64,000 nucleotides of DNA from assembly GCA_004519485.1 (NCBI GenBank), contig CP038116.1:124001-188000 (forward strand), written 5' to 3'. Below are positions 1,743 to 42,649 of this stretch, piece after piece. Within the stretch, counting starts at the first letter, position 1. Each line of letters starts with the position of its first letter. The position numbers and the translations under genes are program-made. Origin of the DNA: Nannochloropsis oceanica (taxonomy: Eukaryota > Sar > Eustigmatophyceae > Eustigmatales > Monodopsidaceae). The notes beneath the pieces are model-generated. The model worked only from the letters and a program-made list of their open reading frames with translations, was not told the DNA's origin and searched no databases.

Positions 1743-3446
1743 CTAAATACCAATAGGCACAACCCCGATCGCTTGCAATGACAAGGCGGCCGCCTCCTCG
1801 TCCTGCGGCTCCACCGGCGCCGAAGCCGCCAACTGGCCCTCCTCCACCTCCTCGTCCTCGTCCTCTCCCTCCTCTTCCCCCTCAATATCCTCCTCTACCT
1901 GCTCATCCTCCTCGTCATGCTGCTGTTGCTGACCCTTCCCCCGACCTTTCCCTCGTACGCGCCGTCCTACGCTTCCTCCCCTTCCTACCCCCCTTCCCCT
2001 CCCCGCCCTCGGGCGCTTCCTCCCTTCCCCCCCCGCTGCTGCTCCTGTTCCCCCCCCTCCTCCCTCAACCATAACCAAGGGCTCTTCGAGTGGAACAAGG
2101 ACTGGCATCAGGGTGAGACCTACTCCCCCCGTGTCCCTTCCTCCCGTCGTGCCATCCACCACCAACGGCAACGGCGGCGGCAATATCACCATAGCTGCTG
2201 TCCCCCCGCCGCCTCCTCCTGCTCCTCCTTCATTCAAACTATAACTGCTGCTGCAATTGAGAGAATTCCCCACTACCCCTCCCCTCCCTCCCTCTCCCCC
2301 CTTCCCCTTCCTCTGCCTCGGCAGAGGTACCGAGTGCACCATACCCTCCTCCTTGTGTTCCATACACCTCACAGGTTTCCCTCCCCCCCCACTCCCTCCC
2401 TCCCCCTCCCCCCGTGCGTATACCGGCTTTTTAAAGCATCCCTCCACTTCACACCGACGACTCTTCATATCCCTCATCCCCTCCTCCTTATGACGGGTAC
2501 ACCTCGTCGCTCCCTTCCCATCGTCAAAACCAAACGACGGTTGCGTCATGCATCCTTCGGGGAAATCGCACAACTTATGAGCCACATTCACGTGATGCTC
2601 CTCCCTGTGGCCCCGACAGCGCACCGGCTTCTTCAACCCCGGTTCACCATACGTAGGAACCTTTCCACAGCCTTTCACATCACACCGGCGGGAGACCACG
2701 TTCACTTCTCCTTCCTCTCGGTGCTTCGCGCAATGTCGGGGCGCTTCCCCAGGATGGGCATAGGATGGCTGGATCCGACACGACGCATCGGCACATTTTT
2801 TACTCACCACATCCACCATCCCCTCCTTCTTGTGCGAGGCACACGAGATCGCCTTCTGGCCTTCGTGTCCGTAGTAAGGAAGCTTCTTGCACGTCTCGAC
2901 ATGGCAGCGACGGGTCATGCTCACCATCAGGGGCCGTTGATGCTCGGCGCAGACGATGGCCTTCTTGGTGTCAGGGTACCCGTAATAGGGAGATTTTTGA
3001 CAGCCCAGTTCTTCGCACAGGCGGTGGGCTACATCGAGCATACCTTCTTCCTTGTGCGTTGCGCAGCGAGTCCTCCGCTTCTTCCCGGGGTCGAGGGGGT
3101 CAATCCACCCATAGCTGGCCCGCTTCACGCACGCCTCGAAATCACACAGGGAGCCAGTCACGTTGATCATTTCGGCCTGGCGGTGCTCCGAGCAATACAG
3201 TGCCTTCTGACCCTTGAAACCATAATGTGGTCGCTTCTGACACCCTTGTCCGGCCTCACATTTTCGGTTCACCAAGTCTACCATCCCCATCCCCTCGGGT
3301 CTGTGCTTAGAACAGAATTCGGCCCGTTGCCCCTCATTCCCGTAGATAGCGACTTTTTTGCAGCCCTCCGCGCCACAAAAGCCCATTTTTAAACCCTTGA
3401 GTGCATTTGCTGCCCCAGGCGCGCCTCGGGGGCCGGCGAGATTACC

Positions 3447-3480
<34 letters not shown>

Positions 3481-3810
3481 TTGGCGTTGCTGTTAATGAG
3501 ATTGCGTCGAGTGCTTGTAGTGATGGGGGACGAAGCCGACGAGATAGAGGAGGAAGGGGGAGGAGGGAGAGTCCCATCCGAGATGGAGGGGGGAGAAGGT
3601 GTGCCATTTGTGGAAGAGGGAGAAGATGGGGAAGTGGAGGTAGACGATGAGCGGTCGTGGTAGGCGTTGTTACTGTTGGGAGAGGAGGAAACTGTGCCGT
3701 CCCCAATATGTTGTTCTCCTTGTTGTTGCCGCACCTTCTCCTGTTTCACCTTACGCTGCTGCTGCTGCTGCTGCTGGTGCTGCTGCTGCTGTTGCTGTTG
3801 CTGCTGCTGT

Positions 3811-3842
<32 letters not shown>

Positions 3843-5601
3843 TTGTAGTTGTTGCTGTTGTTGTTGTTGTAGTTGTTGCTGCTGCTGCTGCTCTTGTTGT
3901 TGTCGCTGCTCCATGATGGGCTGTGGGACAAAGGGCGCAGTATGCAAGGGATGCTGGTGATTTTGAAGGTGGTGGTGCTGCTGCTGGTGGTGGTGATGAT
4001 GCTCTCCCTCCCCCCCATTTCCCCCCCCTCCTCCTCCACCACCACCACCCATATGGGATGGCGCATGAAGATGCTGGTCATGATGCTGCTGTTGTTGCTG
4101 CTGCTGGTGTGGGTCGTGGGGGTGCATGAGCATGTGGGGAAGGGTAACGTGGAGCTCTTGCGCTGCCATGGTAAGGTGATGAAAATTGGGATGGGGCTGA
4201 TGAGGGAGATGGGGAGGCATTGAGGGATGGGCACTGGGGGGCACCATCTGCTGCTGCTGTTGCTGCTGCTGCTGCTGGTGCTGAGGATGGTGTTCTGTGT
4301 GATAGTCGTGCGGCTGTTGTTGCTGCTGCTGCTGCTGGGCATGCTGGTTGCCAGAAGCGATGATAACGTGCGGCAGCTGGTGGAGTAGTTGCTGCTGCTG
4401 CTGTTGCTGCTGTTGCTGCTGTTGCTGCTGCTCGCGGTCCTCCACCATGATCTGAGGCGCGAGGGGAGCGTCGGAATAGTACTGCTCTTGCTGCTGTCGC
4501 TTCTGCTGCTGCTGCTGCTCCTCCTCCTCCTCCTCCTCCTCCTCCTCCTGCTGCTGCTGCTGACGATACCGCTGCTCTTGTACGTGTTGTTGCTGCTCCT
4601 GCTGCTGATGCTGCTGCTCCGGGTGGCCATGGTGCCCATGTTGCTGAGCGTGCATCTCTTGCTGCCGTTCCTCCTGTTGCTCCTCCTCCACCTCATACAT
4701 GGCGTGTCCTTCACCCCCTCTTTCCATTCGAGCCGTCCGTCCTTCTCCTCCTCCGTCTATCTCCCCACCGTCAGCCATAATCACAACACCCGATAAATCA
4801 TCCTCTTCCTCCTCCTCTTCCTCCTGGTGCTGCTGATGCTGTTCCTCCTGAAGCTGCTGATGTTGCTGTTGCTGTTGCTGGTGCTGGTGCTGCTGTTGCT
4901 GTTGAGGGCTCAAGTGATGAAGGTGTTGCTCTTGCTCGTTCTGCACTGCAGCCGCCGCAGCGTTTACCGTCGTCGTTGTAATGGTCATGGCCGCCACGGC
5001 TTCTGATTCAGCCTCGCTCCGCGAGCGTCGCTTCTGAACACCCACCGCCCCAACTAGCACGCCATTCACCCCCCCTCCCTCTGCCGGCCCCTCCATCACA
5101 GGCAAAAGCGACTGGTGGTGGTGGTCATGGTGGTGGTGGTGGTGGTGCGGGTCGTCATCCTCCTCCTCCACCACGCCTTCCGTGGAAAAGTGGTGGTGAT
5201 GACGGGTGTGCTGGTGGAGCATGTCTTCCTCCATCCCCTCTCCCTCATCTTCTTCATCCTCGTGAACGTTCACCGCGTGAAGGTGGTCGTGGTGGTGATG
5301 GTGGTGGTCATGTGTGGTCTGCTTTTGAGAAGGAAGGGAGGTGATGAGTAAAGAGGGGAGGGCGAAATGTTGCCGAAACCTGGGATTATATCTGCACGGG
5401 GACGACTTGTCCTCTACAGTGCCTTAAGTACACACAATAAGCACGCAATAAGGGCACATTATATTGCACACTTAATGCCTCCACCACACCCGTGATAGGG
5501 GCAGCTCAACAAGCACTGGCAAAGACTCATGCAAAAGTATCTTTCGCCTGGCAACCAACCAATCGACAAACCACACGCACATCCTTGCTCACCTCGTCCA
5601 T
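1743..5601 (-). CDS. EsV-1-7 repeat protein with long poly-Gln/His N-terminal region
   Basis: Two exons join in phase 0: a three-codon first exon, 5601-5593 (ATG GAC GAG, then donor GTGAGC), and 5321-1743. This gives about 1,195 aa. The N-terminal half is low complexity: His runs, acidic runs and long poly-Gln blocks. From about residue 650 to 1000 (bases about 2330-3390) there are nine Cys/His repeats of the form C-x4/5-C-x(about 15-25)-C-x2-H. Examples are CGAEGC...CSKH, CEELGC...CAEH and CDVKGC...CRGH. This is the EsV-1-7 motif, known from Ectocarpus (IMMEDIATE UPRIGHT), phaeovirus EsV-1 and other stramenopiles. The C-terminal part is Gly/Arg-rich (RGRGVGRGG) and then acidic. The function is unknown; a zinc-binding regulatory protein is plausible, by inference. 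The main exon starts at an AAGCAG tandem acceptor, so one Gln may be optional. Confidence 0.85.
3750..4630 (-). repeat. CAG/CAA repeat blocks encoding poly-Gln
   Basis: Many interrupted CTG/TTG (plus-strand) triplet arrays encode Gln runs in the EsV-1-7 gene, for example at about 3752-3870, 4247-4340, 4389-4432 and 4500-4570. The mix of CAG and CAA codons suggests retained protein-level repeats rather than one recent expansion. Confidence 0.9.
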
Positions 5602-6160: not shown

Positions 6161-7876
6161 ATGTTTTTTTCCTTCTTCCCATCGTCCGCCACGGCAGCCG
6201 ATCCTTTGCCGAGCTCGTCCCCACTGCGTGTTGGAAGAGCATTGACACGTATAGAAGCCCCTGCCTTGTCGGCTGCCACGGCGTACGACTCTTTTTATGG
6301 CAGCAATCTTACCCAGAAGCTACGGGACAAATTTAAGCTAGTGGACAAACCGATTGTCTTCCACTCTAGAATCTCGTCGTCAGGTTATGGCCAGCAACAA
6401 AAAATATCACATTCAAAAGCAAAGAAATATGCGAACATGACTGCACCACCTTTGCCACTTATCCTGCCGCGGTATCCGATGGAAGACGAAGATGGGCCGC
6501 CAACCGTGGCCTACTGGAGCCCTCGAGCATGCGACATTCCTGGTCCCTCTTCAGCAGCACATGTGACGGCCTCGCCTCTCCTAGACATGGCTTATAGTTA
6601 TAAGGGTGATTTATTGGCCCTCGCAGCCATGGACGGCACGGTTCAAGTTTTTCCCCTTGCCAAGTCTCGTCGCCGCCGACCCCCTACTGTTTTCTCCGCA
6701 TCAACTGCTCCTGTGCGTTCCGTTTCCCTCAGCCACAGCCAAGAGCTGGTGTTGGCCTCTTCGGACGATGGGATAGCCAGTCTTTTTTACATGGGGGAAA
6801 TTTGTAATCGCAAAAATGCGAGCATGAGCCGTCGTGTCTCTCCAGTGGTCCGCATTGACCCTTCCTTTTCATCTCCTCATATGTCGAAAAAGCAAAGCGG
6901 AGGTTGTCGCAACGACAGTATCGGTGGCAGCTCCAGTTCCTTCACTTCGATATCAACGGTATCAAATACAGCCCCGTCTCCTCCCGCCGTCACCGCTGTT
7001 TCATTCTTCTATCTGGATAGATACATACTCCTCGCCTCACAGAATAAGCTCTCCCTGCATACCTACCACATTGCAATACCCGCCAAAGACGCCTTGATCC
7101 GTCATCACAGCCGCTCCCTCTCCTCCTCGTCTTCTTCAACTAGTCCTGCTGCTAATGCAACTCACACATTCCATGTGTGGGTACACGATCACGCCCACCA
7201 ATTAACTGCTGTTGCTTGTCTCAACAGCACCCTCTCCCCTCTCATCCTCACTGCCTGCTCCGACCGCTCCTTCTCCCTCCTCGACGCCACCCATGGAAGC
7301 TTCTTGCGTACATTTTTTGACGCGCATGCCCGTTCCATCCACTCTCTAAGCGTGCCAAACTCCTCTCAATTCGTCGCGTCTCCCTCCCTTCCTCCATCCC
7401 ACCTGGACGTGTTTGCGAGTGCTGCTGCTGATAGCACGGTATCACTTTGGGACTTGAGAGCAGGAGCTGCCAAGATTGCTTTTTTCAATGATCATATCAA
7501 TCGACGAGAGAAGATTGGAGTCGCCTTTTCACCTTGTGTCAGATTTTTGGCCGTTGGGAGTGAGGATGGTGTGGCTTACGTATATGACTTGAGGAAGGGG
7601 AGGGAGACGGTATATACCACTAGCACTAGCAGCAGCAGCAACACCACTAACAGCAGCAATAGCAGCAGCACCAGCAGCGAGATGATAAATGAAGGCAAGG
7701 GAGTTGACAATGAGGAGGATGGAAGGGAGAGGCGGTGCCAAGGAAGGAAGGGAGGAAGGGCGGGACCGACGCCTCATGGCAACGTTGTTTCGTGCGTGGC
7801 TTTCAACCCGTTGCATCCCGAGCTGGTGACTGGCTCTTACGATGGAGGGGTACGTTTTCACGATCGGGGTGAGTGA
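6161..7876 (+). CDS. WDR27: WD40-repeat protein, WDR27-like
   Basis: This is a beta-propeller protein of about 571 aa with at least six WD-type repeats. The C-terminal half follows the pattern of animal WDR27 closely: FFYLDRYILLAS, then TACSDRSFSLLD, AHARSIHSL, TVSLWDLRAG, GVAFSPCVRFLAVGSEDGVA and YVYDLRKG, then VAFNPLHPELVTGSYDGG. A Ser/Asn-rich spacer (about residues 485-530) sits between the last two blades. WDR27 in animals is longer (about 800 aa), so N-terminal blades may be absent here or in an unread exon. The C terminus is uncertain: FHDRG is followed at once by GTGAGT, a good donor. A short second exon starting near 8139 (cag then aacatgac) would end FHDREHDNSGG. The cellular role is poorly known even in animals. 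Confidence 0.75.
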   Translation: MFFSFFPSSATAADPLPSSSPLRVGRALTRIEAPALSAATAYDSFYGSNLTQKLRDKFKLVDKPIVFHSRISSSGYGQQQKISHSKAKKYANMTAPPLPLILPRYPMEDEDGPPTVAYWSPRACDIPGPSSAAHVTASPLLDMAYSYKGDLLALAAMDGTVQVFPLAKSRRRRPPTVFSASTAPVRSVSLSHSQELVLASSDDGIASLFYMGEICNRKNASMSRRVSPVVRIDPSFSSPHMSKKQSGGCRNDSIGGSSSSFTSISTVSNTAPSPPAVTAVSFFYLDRYILLASQNKLSLHTYHIAIPAKDALIRHHSRSLSSSSSSTSPAANATHTFHVWVHDHAHQLTAVACLNSTLSPLILTACSDRSFSLLDATHGSFLRTFFDAHARSIHSLSVPNSSQFVASPSLPPSHLDVFASAAADSTVSLWDLRAGAAKIAFFNDHINRREKIGVAFSPCVRFLAVGSEDGVAYVYDLRKGRETVYTTSTSSSSNTTNSSNSSSTSSEMINEGKGVDNEEDGRERRCQGRKGGRAGPTPHGNVVSCVAFNPLHPELVTGSYDGGVRFHDRGE

Positions 7877-8251: not shown

Positions 8252-11200
8252 TTAGCCTTGGCATGACAAGCAAACGTCATCACCACATGCGCCTACATCT
8301 CCGTTCTCCCCATCCTCATCGTCATCCTCATCATTAAGTTCCTCCTCCTCCTCCTCCTCTATCGAAACCGCCGTCATAGGGCCCCTCCCCTCCCCCCCTA
8401 CTTCCTCAGAAGCCCCCTTCCTCCGCTTCTTCAACACCGGTTGCTTGTCCACCGTGAATTGAATGGCGCTCGCTGCCGGCTTGGTCCGAAGGTAGTACAT
8501 CCCCGTCTTGAGGCCCTTCTTCCAGGCGTAAAAATGCATACTTGTCTTAAGAGAGGGAGGGAGAAAGGATCGAAGGGAGGGAGGGAGAAAGATAAGTTGG
8601 TAGATATGACTGAGTGATGAAAATTCAAATAAGACACAAAATTCTGATCGCACAAAGCGTAGCATACTTCCCTCACTCTCTCACTCTTTCCCTCTTCCCC
8701 TCTCTTCTCTACACGCACTCACCAAACGACTGTAATCTGGCTCTGCCATAAACGCATTCAAACTCTGACTCTGGTCAATATACGCCCCTCGATCCGCTGC
8801 CATATCAATCAATGACTTCTGCTTTATCTCCCACACCGTCCTATAAATTTCTTTCAACTCTTGCGGCAGCCCCGGCACACGTTGGACTGACCCCCCCTCC
8901 GCCACCACCGCATTGCGCACCGCCGCCGTCCACAGGCCGCGCGCCGTCAAATCTTGCAACAAATGAGGGTTGACGACAATAAATTCCCCAGCCTTAACTC
9001 GACGCGAGTACAGGTTAGAAGTATAGGGCTCGATACATTCATTATAACCCAGAATCTGCGCTGTGGAGGCCGTGGGCATGGGCGCGAGGAGAAGTGAGTT
9101 CCGGAGCCCGTGTTCCTTTATCTTTTTTTTCAAGGCGGCCCAGTCCCACCGGCCACTGTCAGGGGTCACCCCCCACAGGTCAAATTGCAGCTTTCCCTCA
9201 CTTGCTGGGCAGCCGGGATAAGACTCGTAGGGCCCATGTTCCCGCGCCAGCTCCATTGAGGCCGAGCAGGCCGCAAAATAAATTGTTTCAAAGATCTCTT
9301 TATTCAATGTACGCGCACCGGGGCTGTCGAAAGGCAAGCGGAGCTGGATGAAGGTATCGGCCAGGCCTTGCACTCCCATACCGATAGGACGATGCTTCTT
9401 GTTACTTCGCTCGGCTTCTGGTACCGGATAGAGATTCCGGTCGATGATCTTGTTCAGATTTCGGACGACGACCTTGGTAACATTATAAAGGGCGTGGTGG
9501 TTGAACGCCAACCTATCGCCCTCACCGCCCTCCATCCCCTTCTCCCCCGCGAACGACGACATGGCCTTCTTAGCATCAAAAATCCCCTCAGCACCCTCCC
9601 CACAATCTGCCGCAGGCATCACAAATTTGGGCAGAACGATCGAGGCCAAGTTACACACAGCCACCTCCTCGGGGCTCGTATACTGGATAATCTCCGTGCA
9701 CAAGTTCGAGCTTCGAATCGTCCCTAAATTTTGCTGATTGCTCTTAAGATTACACGCGTCTTTGAAGAGCATATAAGGCGTGCCCGTTTCGATCTGTGAG
9801 TCCAGGATGGCGAACCACAGGTCTTGCGCACGCACTGTCTTTTTTACTTTCCCAGCTTTTTCGTATTGCAGATACAGGACCTCAAACTCTTTGCCATGAC
9901 AGTCGCCCAAGCCAGGACACTGATCAGGACACATCAGTGACCAAATCCCATCTTCCTCCACTCTCTTCATAAACAAATCGGGAATCCAAAGCCCGTAAAA
10001 GAGGTCGCGCGCCCGGGCTTCTTCCTTCCCATGGTTCTTCCTTAAGTCAAGCACCTCGAAGATATCCGCATGCCAAGGCTCAATGTAAATAGCAAATGCT
10101 CCCGGTCGCTTCCCTCCCCCCTGATCGACATACCGAGCAGTCACGTCAAACACACGCAGCATGGGCACCAAGCCATTACTCGTTCCCTTCGTTCCTTTGA
10201 TGTACGCTCCGTGCGCGCGAATGTTGTGCACAGACAAGCCAATCCCACCCGCCGCCTTACTGATGACCGCGCACTGTTTCAAGGTGTCATAGATCCCCAC
10301 AATCGAATCCGCCTTCATAGTTAAGAGGAAACATGAAGACATCTGGGGGAAACGCGTCCCGGCGTGAAATAAAGTGGGCGACGCGTGAATAAACCACTTA
10401 TTACTCATCAATTCATACGTCTCGAGCGCCGCCTCTAAGTCATTTCCATGAATCCCCAGCGCCACGCGCATCAACATATACTGTGGGCGCTCCACCACCT
10501 TTTTCCCAAGCTTCAACAGGTAAGATCGCTCCATTGTCTTGAACCCAAAATAGTCAAAGAAATAATCGCGATCGTGATGGATGGCCGCGTCCAATACAGG
10601 GCCATGGGTGTGAATAAGTGAGATAACTTCATCGGAGATAAAACCAGCCGAATGCCCCGTGGCACTATCTACGTACTCGTAGAGCTGCTGCATGGTCTGT
10701 GAGAAAGACGGGTTTGTTTCCTTGTGCAGGTTCGAGACAGAGACCCTGGCCGCGAGCCGGGCATAATCTGGGTGATCGACATTCATATAGGCAGCAGTCT
10801 CGGCGGCAAGATTATCAAGTTCAGCCGTCGAAACACCGTTGTACATTCCTTGAACCACCTTCTGTGCGACGCGGCCAGGGTCTACGTAGGCGGTGTTAAG
10901 GCCTTCACAGAGGCTGCGCAGTCGACGAGTGACCTTATCGAAGGCCACGGGTTCCTTTCTCCCGTCGCGTTTCACCACGTGCAAAAATGGCGCCTCGCCA
11001 CTTTTGTCCTTCAGAGATTGAAGAACGTCGCTGCTGGTCGCGGTAGAAGTGGTGCTGGAAGGAGAAGAGAAGGAGGGGGGAACAACCTCTTCGTCGTTGC
11101 TTGCCGCAGCGCGGGAGGGCTGTGGGACGCCAGGTTTGCGAGTGCGGGGTGTCGCGACAGTTCCGACAGAGTCATGTCGTCTCGTAGTTGCGGGATGGGG

Positions 11201-11359
11201 TGCCGCTCCTGAAGCGGAGAATGGAGGTTGTGGCGGTGATGGGGACGCCCCTGCCTGTAGCAACAGACATGTCAAGCCTAGCGTCAGCAAGCGCAAGAGG
11301 GCAAAAATAGAGCGCTTTGGCTTAGCCAGAGTGCAAGATGCCGTGTCCTTGGTCGCCAT
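8252..11359 (-). CDS. RNR1: Ribonucleoside-diphosphate reductase large (alpha) subunit, class I
   Basis: It reduces NDPs to dNDPs with the small radical subunit. Two exons join in phase 0: 11359-8723 and 8545-8252 (about 976 aa). An ATP-cone begins near residue 130 ([16 protein letters not shown]). Catalytic features are present: the Cys of MSSCFLL, the NLCTEI loop (Asn, Cys, Glu), the second redox Cys in VAVCNLASI, the [12 protein letters not shown] loop, and [12 protein letters not shown]. Exon 2 supplies the helix [19 protein letters not shown], an acidic linker, and the C-terminal redox pair in DDVCLSCQG. Unusually, about 130 residues precede the ATP-cone. They include a hydrophobic stretch at about 17-36 that looks like a signal peptide or signal anchor, followed by a Ser/Pro/Thr-rich segment. 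This could be plastid or ER targeting, or the true start may lie further in. Confidence 0.95.
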
Positions 11360-38095: not shown

Positions 38096-40312
38096 CTACC
38101 GCTTTTCCACAAATTGATACATGGGCACCTGCTGCCTACTATCCATCCCTCCTCCCCCCCTCCTCCTTCCTCTGCCTCCTCCCCTTCCTCCTTCCTGCTG
38201 CGCCACCGTCGACTCTGGGAAAGACGGAGTATCCAAAAAAGCAAAGGAAGACATCATCCCTCCCCCAATCCCTCCACCGCTTCCATACCTACCCATCATC
38301 GCCGCAGTCGCCGCCGACGAATCAGCACCAGCACCAGCACCAGCACCAGCACCAGTACCGGGAGCAGCAGCGGCACCGGTAGCAGCAGCAGGAGCAGCAG
38401 GAGCAGCAAAGACAGCCGTGGTAAACTGGCGGCACATGCCCTGCACCCCCACCCAAAACATCCGATACTCGCCCAACCTCGCTACGAATCGGTCCTTCAA
38501 CCGCGGTTTGTGCGAGTACCCCACAAAACGTTCCACGTGTTCGGATTTCTGCAACAGCGCTTCCAGAATGACTTCTGTCTGTGCCCAGAAGATGGCGAGG
38601 TGCTCCAATATTTCATCCACGTCCCGCAGCTTCGCCAGCACTAAGGAGAGCTCTCGAGATTTAGGGCTGGGGGAGAGAGGGCGGACGGATTGGAAGGAAC
38701 GTTGGGAGGGAGTGGGGGGGGGGTCGACAGCCATTGTTGTGTACATCTGACTAGGGGCACGGCCGAAGCTGGTGTCCATTGCCAGAGGGTCCACAGCACC
38801 ATCCCTTCCCCCTTCCTTTCCTCCTTCGCTTCCTCTTTCCCCGCCATCCACAATAGTTCCTCTTCCCGCCGGACCAGAGCCTAGTTTCCTTCCCGCCTTC
38901 ACTTCCTCCAACACCCCTTCGCCCTTCCCCTTCCCCTGCTGCTGCTGCTGCCGCAGCAGGTGGTTGCTGCCATTGACGGAAAAGAACAAATCGAGCAGTT
39001 GAGTCTCGGATAGTTTCACGTCGCTGTCCGTCGCCTCCTTCAGTTTTTTTACGGCCTGGTAGAGCTCCGGGTCAAGGGACAAGAGCCCGGCCTCCTTTTG
39101 ACGTTCCACCGTGGACGAGGAGGAAGACGAGGAGGAAGACGAGGTGGATGACGAGGAGGAGAGGGTGGAGGAAGAGGAGGAGGTGGAGTCGTTGCGCCGG
39201 GTGACGTGTCCTCCTTCTTTTGGGACGGAGGGGACAGAGGGGTGCGGTTGCTTGTGTGGGAGAGGCCCGGATTCTCTGTCACGGTCATCACGGCTGCGAA
39301 TGCGGGAGACGCGTTTCTGTTGTTTTGGTCCTCCTTGCTGCTGCTGCTGCTGTTGGTGCGGCTGTTGTTGTTGTTGTTGCTGCTGTTGTTTTTGTTGCTG
39401 CTGTTGTTGCTGCTGTGGCGGCGGCAGATGGTAGAGGTGGTTGGTAGCGGAATTGCTTGTGCCCGCACTTTTCGACTTTTCTTCTTCCTGCTGCAACGCT
39501 GATGAAATAGAACCCTCTCTCGCTACCTCCCTCCCTACCTCCATCCCCGCCACCGACAACGAGCTCGATGAAACACTTTCAATACGTGCCCCCCCCATAT
39601 ACATCCCTCCCTCCCTCCCTCCCTCCCTCTCCCTCCCATCCTCCTCCCCCTCCTCCACGTCCTCCTCCTCTTCCATCTCCCCTCCTTTCACCAAAATATT
39701 GTGCAATTTAAAGATGCTCTCTTGATTGCGGTGCTGAGCTTTCCCGACGGTACGCCTCAGATCCCCCACCCATTTCTTCACAGTCTCGAAAAAGTCCTGC
39801 GCCAGGGCCGGTTCATCGTCTTCTATAGCCAGCTCCAGGTCCGGAAACATTTCGAGGACAGAGGCGGCTAACGGGGTTAGGAAGGGAAGGAGGGAGGGAG
39901 GGAAGAAAGGAGGGAGGAAGAGGTCAGTAGCTTGCAAATCTTTCATCTCCCCCGCTCGCGTTTCAAAGGTTTGGCCTCCACGCCAAGGGAGACTTTTCGC
40001 CTTTCACGGCCAGTCCCACCACTCCCTCCTTTCCTCCTTCCCTCCCTACCTGTCTGCTCAATCGATTTCAGGAGCTTAATGGTGTATATGAGTTGGGAGC
40101 GACAGAGGACCGCCGACCGTTTCACGTCATGGGCGTCGGTGGGTGAATGTGCGCATGCTCGGTGGGCGAGTTCGATGGATTGGGCAATGGCGTGCTGGAT
40201 CGTCAACAGGGGGAGCAGCTTGAGGGACTCGCTGTTGTGGCTGTTGTTGCTGTTGTTGTTTACCATGAAATTGAAAGTAGACAGCTGCTGTTGTTCTGGT
40301 TGTTGCTGTTGC

Positions 40313-40348
<36 letters not shown>

Positions 40349-40445
40349 TGCTGTTGCTGCTGCTGCTGGTAGTAGTAGGACGGGTTTGAAAGGGCTGTGG
40401 TGGTGGGAAGAATTGGGGGAGAAAGAAGAGAAAGGAGACCCGAGC

Positions 40446-40491
<46 letters not shown>

Positions 40492-40495
40492 TTGC

Positions 40496-40528
<33 letters not shown>

Positions 40529-42649
40529 GGGTGGTAGTGTTGTTGCTGCTGGGGGTGGTAGTGTTGTTGCTGCTGCTGGTGATGGTGGTGGTGTTGCTGC
40601 TGCTGCTGTTGATGCACGGAGGAGTAAGAGGAGGAGAAAGAGGAGGAGGGTGGGAAGGAGGACGGGTCTTGGTGCACGACTTTCATGCCGGGCTCCATCC
40701 GGATGTTGGTCCGCACCTGAAAAGGGGAGGAAAGGAAGGAGGGAGGAAGGAAAAAAGGATGATGAATAAGATACACACTTAAGATTACACCTGCAATTTG
40801 TCTGTTAAGAATGAGAATCAGGAGGGGGGGGGAAGGGAATGAGAGAGGGAGGAAGGGAGGGGTGCAAGGGGGCCAGCCGAACGCGTACCTGGTCACCGGA
40901 GGAGGTCAGTCGGAATATCTCCTCGTCGTAGCTCCCTCCGCCCGTACACTCTTCCAGCCCCATCGTCGTCGATATAGACGCAGACAGTTCTCGAGGGGTC
41001 GGGGGAGCGGGAGGAGGGGAGGGAGGAAGGGCTAGAGGCAGTTTCCCTCTTCCTCCCCCCACGGCCAAGCGCCCCATCATCCCATCCATCCGCTGCTGCT
41101 GCTGCTGCTGCTGCCGTTGCGCGGAGGAGGAGGTTTGAATGGTCGGTCCTACAAAGGGCTCTCCGGTAATCCACGGGTGTTTGAGGGCTTGCGCGACGCT
41201 GAAGCGTGCTTGCGGGTCAACCTTGGGAAGGAGGGAGGGAGAGAGGGAGAGAGGGAGTGAGGGAGGGAGGGAGGGAGGGTCAGAACCTGATGTATGGTAA
41301 GTAGTAGCTTGCAGATCATGCATCACGTGCAGACAAAATAGAGCGAAAGGGAGGGAGGGGAGGAGGGAGGGGAGAAAAGGCACGCCGTACATACCTGCAT
41401 CAAACACCTCACCAGATCCTTCGCCGCAGCACTCACCCCCCCCCACGCCGGTGCTTCCAACTTGACCGTCATCCCCCCCTTACTCCGATCAAACTCAGGA
41501 AACCGCGCCACCAGCATAACATACAACACCGCACCCAAGCTCCAACAATCCACCTTCACCCCGTACCCTCCCCCTCTCCCATAGGCCCTCGCCTCCACCT
41601 CGGGCGCCAGGTAGCATGGCGTGCCCACAAAGGTCCGTGCCGCCGACCCTTCATCCGTCCCCACCATCTTGCTCAAGCCAAAATCAAGGAGCTTGGCCCA
41701 TGGAAAATGCCCCTCTGGGGAGAGAGTGTCCAACAAGACGACATTTTCGGGCTTTACGTCCCGGTGGATGATGTTGAGGGAGTGGAGGTACAGCAGGGCT
41801 TGCGCGACTTGCGTGAATATGGGCCGAGCGTCGTCTTCCGAGTACCGTTTTTTCTGTAGGATGGAGTCAAACAGTTCGGTCCCGCGGGCATACTCAAGGA
41901 CAAGCATTAAGTTGGTGTCATTCTCGTAGACACCTTCGAGCTTGATGATGTGGGGGTGTTCTAGGCGTTGCATTATTTCAACTTCTCGTCGTAGGCGCGT
42001 CTGATCAAAGTTATCACGGAGTTGCAAGGGCCGGAGATCGATTAATTTGACGGCAAAATCTTCGCCGGTCACCCGGTTGGTGCACCGGTGGACGACACTG
42101 AAGGCACCACGGCCGATTTCTTCGTGCAGGACGTACAGTCTGTAGGGAGGATGGGGAGGGAAGGAAGAGAGAATGGATTGCTATACCAGAGGTGCGATGA
42201 AGCAGGGTGAGGCAACTGCAGGGAATACCATGTATCTGCTGCAAAAAGGCCCGAAAATTCAAAATATACCATAGGTCAAGCCACGACACTTGTCAAGTGG
42301 CCAATGCTTCCAACTCCGCCGCGATACATAAGCACCGCAAACATGCACTTGGGCTATGGTAGCACACGCAATGAAATAATCTTCATGATATGCTCCATTC
42401 CCCTTCAAAAGATACACCTAAGCGTTTCATCCTTGTGTACCTGTTGAACGCCTCGATGTCGCGGGAGGGCTTGGTTGGGCATGAGGGCATTCGAATTGGC
42501 GGTGGCGGAGGCATCATGATAGCATCTAGCTGCGGCTCCTGTTGCAGAGGCGGCTGACCGGGGCTGCTGGAACCACTATCATTTTGACTATCGTTGTCCG
42601 TCCCCTGTTCCTCCCCACCCTGTCGGTATCCTTGGTAGTATGGTATCAT
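38096..42649 (-). CDS. CAMK/CHK2-like Ser/Thr protein kinase with long Gln-rich C-terminal region
   Basis: Five exons: 42649-42441, 42139-41395, 41221-40889, 40716-40050 and 39867-38096, about 1,241 aa, all in phase. The kinase domain (about residues 70-335) is complete: EEIGRGAFSVV (Gly loop), FAVKLID (Lys), LEYARGTELFD, HRDVKPENVVLLD (catalytic loop), LLDFGLSKMVG (DFG), GTPCYLAPEVEA (activation loop), DCWSLGAVLYVMLV and ALKHPWITGEPF. After it come poly-Gln blocks and two helical, non-repetitive segments: LLTIQHAIAQSIELAHRAC to LIYTIKLLKSIEQ, and LSLVLAKLRDVDEILEHLAI to FWVGVQGMCRQF. The tail resembles no domain I know. The ATG at 42649 is the first in frame; an upstream in-frame stop precedes it unless another exon exists. 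Confidence 0.85.
40318..40528 (-). repeat. CAG/CAA repeats encoding two poly-Gln blocks
   Basis: Plus-strand CTG/TTG arrays at about 40312-40368 and 40448-40528 encode Gln runs in the tail of the kinase. A further block lies near 39337-39420 and a short one near 41092-41114. Confidence 0.9.

What the first reader, a model, noticed from the sequence alone, without database searches (positions are those of the whole stretch)
1743..5601. Nine-repeat EsV-1-7 protein fused to very long poly-Gln/His tracts
The repeats C-x4/5-C...C-x2-H (nine copies, about residues 650-1000) are read directly. Established knowledge: the EsV-1-7 domain defines the Ectocarpus developmental regulator IMMEDIATE UPRIGHT, and occurs in phaeovirus EsV-1 and scattered stramenopiles. 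This copy sits in what appears to be a unicellular eustigmatophyte and is joined to about 600 residues of Gln/His/acidic low complexity, suggesting a condensate-forming or transcription-related protein (inference). The pattern also gives a lineage marker for the window.
Basis: partly seen in the sequence, partly recalled or inferred. Interest (0 to 1): 0.75.

Follow-up and report, generated by a model that had tools for sequence, protein, structure and literature searches.

The report
Algal nine-finger protein with glutamine tracts
A gene of a tiny marine alga makes a protein with nine small cysteine/histidine modules of a known but poorly understood family; its long glutamine runs are missing in a sister species, and relatives in which the same kind of modules sit on a domain that looks like a DNA-cutting enzyme suggest that the modules read DNA.

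Summary
Minus strand 5601-1743 encodes a predicted two-exon protein of 1194 aa with nine EsV-1-7 motifs (PF19114, E 7e-91) behind about 640 residues rich in Gln, His and acids. The genome fits Nannochloropsis oceanica, and all nine family matches found in it lie in this gene. A N. salina orthologue, already named 'EsV-1-7' in UniRef, shows N-terminus, array and C-terminus in one protein, with nine repeats matching one to one (81% against 38% for unlike repeats).

The Gln runs are not conserved: N. salina has none of five or more, and the genome abounds in CAG repeats (6,191 overlapping (CAG)8 matches; control 25). Short islands and the array are what is kept.

Best explanation: a DNA-binding regulator. 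The main support is new here. Half of the array's relatives (61 of 122) carry a C-terminal domain modelled most like homing/Vsr nucleases, one of them in an algal giant virus. In one viral contig the same domain follows classical C2H2 zinc fingers. EsV-1-7 arrays thus stand where DNA-targeting arrays stand. DNA binding by the algal protein itself is inferred, not shown.

The parts
5593..5601 (-). predicted exon 1, codes Met-Asp-Glu
   Evidence: ATGGACGAG followed by GTGAGC; the N. salina orthologue starts MDEAPHDHHH
5319..5592 (-). predicted 274-bp intron (GT...AG)
   Evidence: no transcript data
1743..5318 (-). exon 2 with stop codon; P0024 is its translation from base 5315
   Evidence: single open frame
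3396..5318 (-). N-terminal low-complexity region rich in Gln, His and acidic residues
   Evidence: composition and 13 Gln runs of 5 or more; the runs are absent from the orthologue
4389..4430 (-). longest Gln run (14), mixed CAG/CAA codons
5160..5246 (-). conserved island, residues 24-52 (..EEDMLHQHTRHHH.FS.EGVVEE)
5061..5132 (-). conserved island, residues 62-85 (HHHQSLLPVMEGPAEG)
4770..4814 (-). conserved island, residues 168-182 (DLSGVVI.AD)
4110..4193 (-). conserved island, residues 375-402 (LTM.AAQELHVTLPHML.HP)
3303..3377 (-). EsV-1-7 motif 1
3183..3260 (-). EsV-1-7 motif 2
3054..3146 (-). EsV-1-7 motif 3
2940..3017 (-). EsV-1-7 motif 4
2832..2906 (-). EsV-1-7 motif 5
2721..2795 (-). EsV-1-7 motif 6
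2607..2684 (-). EsV-1-7 motif 7
2490..2570 (-). EsV-1-7 motif 8
2355..2453 (-). EsV-1-7 motif 9 (long Gly-rich insert)
1932..2024 (-). basic stretch GRKRPR...GRRVRGKGRGKG, similar in N. salina; possible nuclear localisation signal
   Evidence: the localisation role is inference
1746..1832 (-). conserved C-terminal island, residues 1162-1190 (PVEPQDEEAAALSLQAIGVVP)

Best explanation
The gene encodes a nuclear, sequence-reading DNA-binding protein. The nine EsV-1-7 modules each fold as a small Cys3His unit (probably zinc-binding) and together bind a long DNA site. The disordered flanks, through their short conserved islands, recruit partners, most likely as a transcriptional regulator. The Gln runs are a tolerated expansion in a CAG-repeat-rich genome, not the working part. 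Shown: family membership, the open frame, all family matches found in the genome lying in this gene, one-to-one conservation of the nine repeats, absence of Gln runs in the orthologue, and the same module type in front of a nuclease-like domain in relatives. Inferred: zinc and DNA binding, nuclear location, regulation, and activity of the nuclease-like domain.
Confidence: 0.55

Rival explanations
1. The array binds RNA, or acts as a protein-interaction scaffold (RING/treble-clef-like modules), and the protein is not a DNA-binding regulator.
Against: Those matches are at noise level. The partner domains seen are a nuclease-like fold and, in print, a transposase (PMC12477816, passage), both pointing to DNA.
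Confidence: 0.2
2. The Gln/His/acidic region is the functional core: a condensate-forming or activation domain that the array only tethers.
For: Residues 1-640 are 24.5% Gln and 12.5% His, with 13 Gln runs. Gln codons are mixed (113 CAG, 44 CAA), which leaves room for selection on the protein. By eye, some other members join EsV-1-7 modules to long Gln/His/Pro-rich flanks (P0045, P0064, P0100).
Against: N. salina lacks every Gln run of 5 or more while islands around them are kept; none of 122 relatives has a run above 5. CAG repeats are pervasive in this genome, and other frames of the window have Gln runs too (38099-40905).
Confidence: 0.15
3. The gene is a recent acquisition from a giant virus.
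For: The family occurs in viruses (P0109, Dishui Lake large algae virus 1; EsV-1 per PMC7457493, passage).
Against: It has a predicted intron and a N. salina orthologue with the same nine repeats; an unnamed ENA protein, P0082, keeps repeats 4, 5 and 6 in order. Single repeats were closest to brown algal ones in 833 of 1800 subsampled contests, to nuclease-bearing proteins in 456 and to others in 511 (rough, and the brown set has only 55 repeats). No nuclease-like domain was found in the genome, but without a positive control.
Confidence: 0.08

Closest known systems
N. salina NSK_008380, UniRef 'EsV-1-7' (P0001)
   Same: Same gene: similar start, islands, nine collinear repeats, basic stretch and C-terminal island
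   Different: 1008 aa; lacks all Gln runs of 5 or more
Brown algal EsV-1-7 family including IMMEDIATE UPRIGHT
   Same: Same Pfam family; the named brown algal hits of the first search show 24-45% identity over 44-81% of the array
   Different: 90 members in Ectocarpus (PMC12629598, passage) against one gene with matches here; the 12 named brown algal hits of two searches have 3-6 motifs by pattern. IMM itself was not identified among the hits
EsV-1-7 array plus nuclease-like proteins (e.g. P0038; P0109 of Dishui Lake large algae virus 1)
   Same: Array of the same modules: P0038 36% identity over 77%, P0109 27% over 86% of the window array
   Different: They carry a C-terminal homing/Vsr-like domain, absent from the window protein
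C2H2 zinc-finger arrays
   Same: Works like, by inference: tandem small Cys/His modules; shares the nuclease-like partner domain in L009
   Different: Different motif and spacing; no C2H2 family hit in the window protein at E <= 1

Membership tests
EsV-1-7 family (PF19114) | Profile match above the curated cut-off | tested here: met
   298 bits whole protein, cut-off 25; each of 9 motifs 32-52 bits
EsV-1-7 family (PF19114) | Repeated C-x4-C ... C-x2-H motif (wording recalled) | tested here: met
   Nine copies, seven with x4 and two with x5, middle spacer 15-23
EsV-1-7 family (PF19114) | Zinc binding | not testable with these tools
IMMEDIATE UPRIGHT orthologue / developmental regulator | Orthology to IMM and a role in cell fate | not tested
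   IMM was not identified by name among hits; Macaisne 2017 is not held
Polyglutamine condensate / activator protein | Gln-rich tract conserved among orthologues | tested here: not met
   0 Gln runs of 5 or more in N. salina, 13 here; one orthologue only
EsV-1-7 array plus nuclease-like protein | C-terminal nuclease-like domain | tested here: not met
   The window protein P0024 shows neither of the two core motifs, and its C-terminus is low-complexity
C2H2 zinc finger | C2H2 profile match | tested here: not met
   No C2H2 family at E <= 1
WRKY19-type zinc finger (PF24906) | Profile match | tested here: not met
   Not matched by the window protein at E <= 1; matches elsewhere in the genome on C10 and C16

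The most novel reading that the evidence does not exclude
EsV-1-7 arrays are a further natural class of modular DNA-reading zinc-finger array. In algal giant viruses and related elements they aim a homing/Vsr-type nuclease, interchangeably with C2H2 arrays and with another CEHGK..C..C array. Stramenopile regulators such as this protein, and by extension the brown algal developmental family, are nuclease-free uses of the same targeting module.
Probability: 0.4. Interest if true: 0.78.

Novelty: new member of a known kind. Interest (0 to 1): 0.48.

Why it matters
The IMM protein of brown algae was described in 2020 as of unknown function (PMC7457493, passage), and its family only hypothesised to be zinc-finger transcription factors (PMC12629598, passage), although the family is expanded in brown algae and tied to development. 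Nannochloropsis offers one such gene in a small alga for which transformation and CRISPR are reported (titles in the reference list of PMC8570151). The array-nuclease relatives give a direct assay: if active, their cut sites would reveal what an EsV-1-7 array reads. The glutamine tracts are a warning: in a CAG-rich genome a long Gln tract in one species says little about function.

Full report
What is there. The minus strand at 5601-1743 holds a predicted two-exon gene: exon 1 codes MDE (5601-5593), a 274-bp GT...AG intron follows, and exon 2 runs from 5318 to the stop at 1743, giving 1194 aa. Pfam finds no family above its cut-off but EsV_1_7_cys (PF19114), nine stretches, E 7.3e-91. Before the array lie about 640 residues with 24.5% Gln, 12.5% His and 9.7% Glu, and 13 Gln runs of five or more.

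Which organism and how many copies. The genome that holds the window has 29,264,788 bases in 32 contigs, and all nine PF19114 matches (12 candidates, all scored) fall in this one gene; the same search rang in 0 of 14 control genomes. The published N. oceanica assembly has 29,303,273 bp in 32 pseudochromosomes, 30 nuclear plus two organellar (PMC6610115, passages). With the closest relative in N. salina, N. oceanica is likely but not proven.

What is conserved. The N. salina orthologue P0001 bears the UniRef name 'EsV-1-7', so the family's presence in this genus was already annotated. Aligned end to end, the proteins share a similar start, four N-terminal islands (residues 24-52, 62-85, 168-182, 375-402 of P0024), a stretch just before the array, nearly the whole array, a basic stretch and the C-terminal island 1162-1190. 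The nine repeats match one to one: mean identity 81% for matching repeats, 38% for all others; repeat 9 is the lowest at 62%. An unnamed ENA protein, P0082, which looks like a translated intron-containing gene, keeps repeats 4, 5 and 6 in the same order (my reading).

What is not conserved. N. salina has no Gln run of five or more; the window protein has 13; none of the 122 relatives from two searches has a run above five, and five have a run of five. This genome has 6,191 overlapping matches to (CAG)8 on both strands, against 25 for the pattern read backwards. The window has 17 CAR tracts of eight or more triplets, 11 of them outside this gene. Two other eustigmatophyte genera have simple repeats at 11.7-20.8% of their genomes (PMC8570151, section 9; the figures are for Monodopsis and Vischeria, whose share is described as higher than in Nannochloropsis). 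With only two species I cannot say whether the runs were gained here or lost there. Codon mixing (113 CAG, 44 CAA) shows the runs are not all fresh slippage.

What the modules probably do. The array model has high local confidence but a low overall score (mean pLDDT 87.6, pTM 0.47) and matches no solved fold with confidence. Function was therefore sought through partner domains. Among 122 relatives from two searches, 61 have a C-terminal core R.D...E.D[EQ].QH by a strict pattern. In the proteins scanned, no Pfam family above its cut-off covers this domain. A search with the domain region of P0038 found 3,809 proteins at E <= 0.001 among 3,873 candidates; of the 120 best, the only ones listed, 113 (query row included) carry PF19114. 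Of the seven without it, six have instead an array of CEHGK..C..C repeats, one of them (P0148) behind a single EsV-like unit, and P0196 has no array (repeats read by eye). P0109 is named as a protein of Dishui Lake large algae virus 1.

The swap. Viral contig L009 encodes a 373-aa protein (4329-5450) with canonical C2H2 fingers (PF00096, five stretches, E 2.2e-32) followed by the same domain. In my alignment of eight chosen domains, D46, R55, D57, E70, D72, E73, Q75, H76, E84, R87, R104, N106, P107 and L147 are invariant (numbers of the first sequence). So one nuclease-like domain is found behind EsV-1-7 arrays, behind a C2H2 array and behind a third array type. Together with the EsV-1-7 domain on a brown algal transposase (PMC12477816, passage), the simplest reading is that EsV-1-7 arrays are DNA-targeting modules. 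In the window protein the array lies between low-complexity flanks, as in many regulators. Columns that differ between repeats yet are kept between species (a2, b3, b-1 in 9 of 9; a1, b5, c1 in 8 of 9) fit a module-by-module read-out, but also fit any old, constrained repeat array, and some variable columns (a-2, c2) are poorly kept.

Verdict. A true EsV-1-7 protein, the only gene with matches in its genome by this search and shared with a sister species: a new member of a known kind, with Gln runs that the sister lacks. Its wider value is the DNA-targeting hypothesis for EsV-1-7 arrays. I found no statement of the nuclease link in the listings and passages seen, but the family's founding paper could not be read.

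Noticed in passing
L009:4329-5450: A viral contig encodes a C2H2 zinc-finger array joined to a homing/Vsr-like domain shared with EsV-1-7 array proteins.
   Followed up: partly
P0127, P0142, P0148, P0162, P0188, P0230 (database proteins): The same nuclease-like domain behind tandem CEHGKxKxxCKxCGGS-type repeats; the two scanned (P0127, P0148) match no Pfam family at E <= 0.1.
   Followed up: partly
38099-40905 (-): Two open frames, overlapping at 39946-40003, with Gln runs of up to 9 and up to 18: another CAG-rich coding candidate in the window.
   Followed up: no
G000:C16:652475-652621: WRKY19-type zinc-finger motifs inside a 1141-codon open frame, and more on C10; a separate Cys/His repeat family in this genome.
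   Followed up: no
8681-11359 (-): Open frame of 892 aa that looks like a ribonucleotide reductase large subunit (recognised by eye; not searched).
   Followed up: no
6161-7876 (+): Divergent neighbour, 571-aa open frame, WD40-like by eye (not searched), facing away from the EsV-1-7 gene across roughly 560 bp.
   Followed up: no
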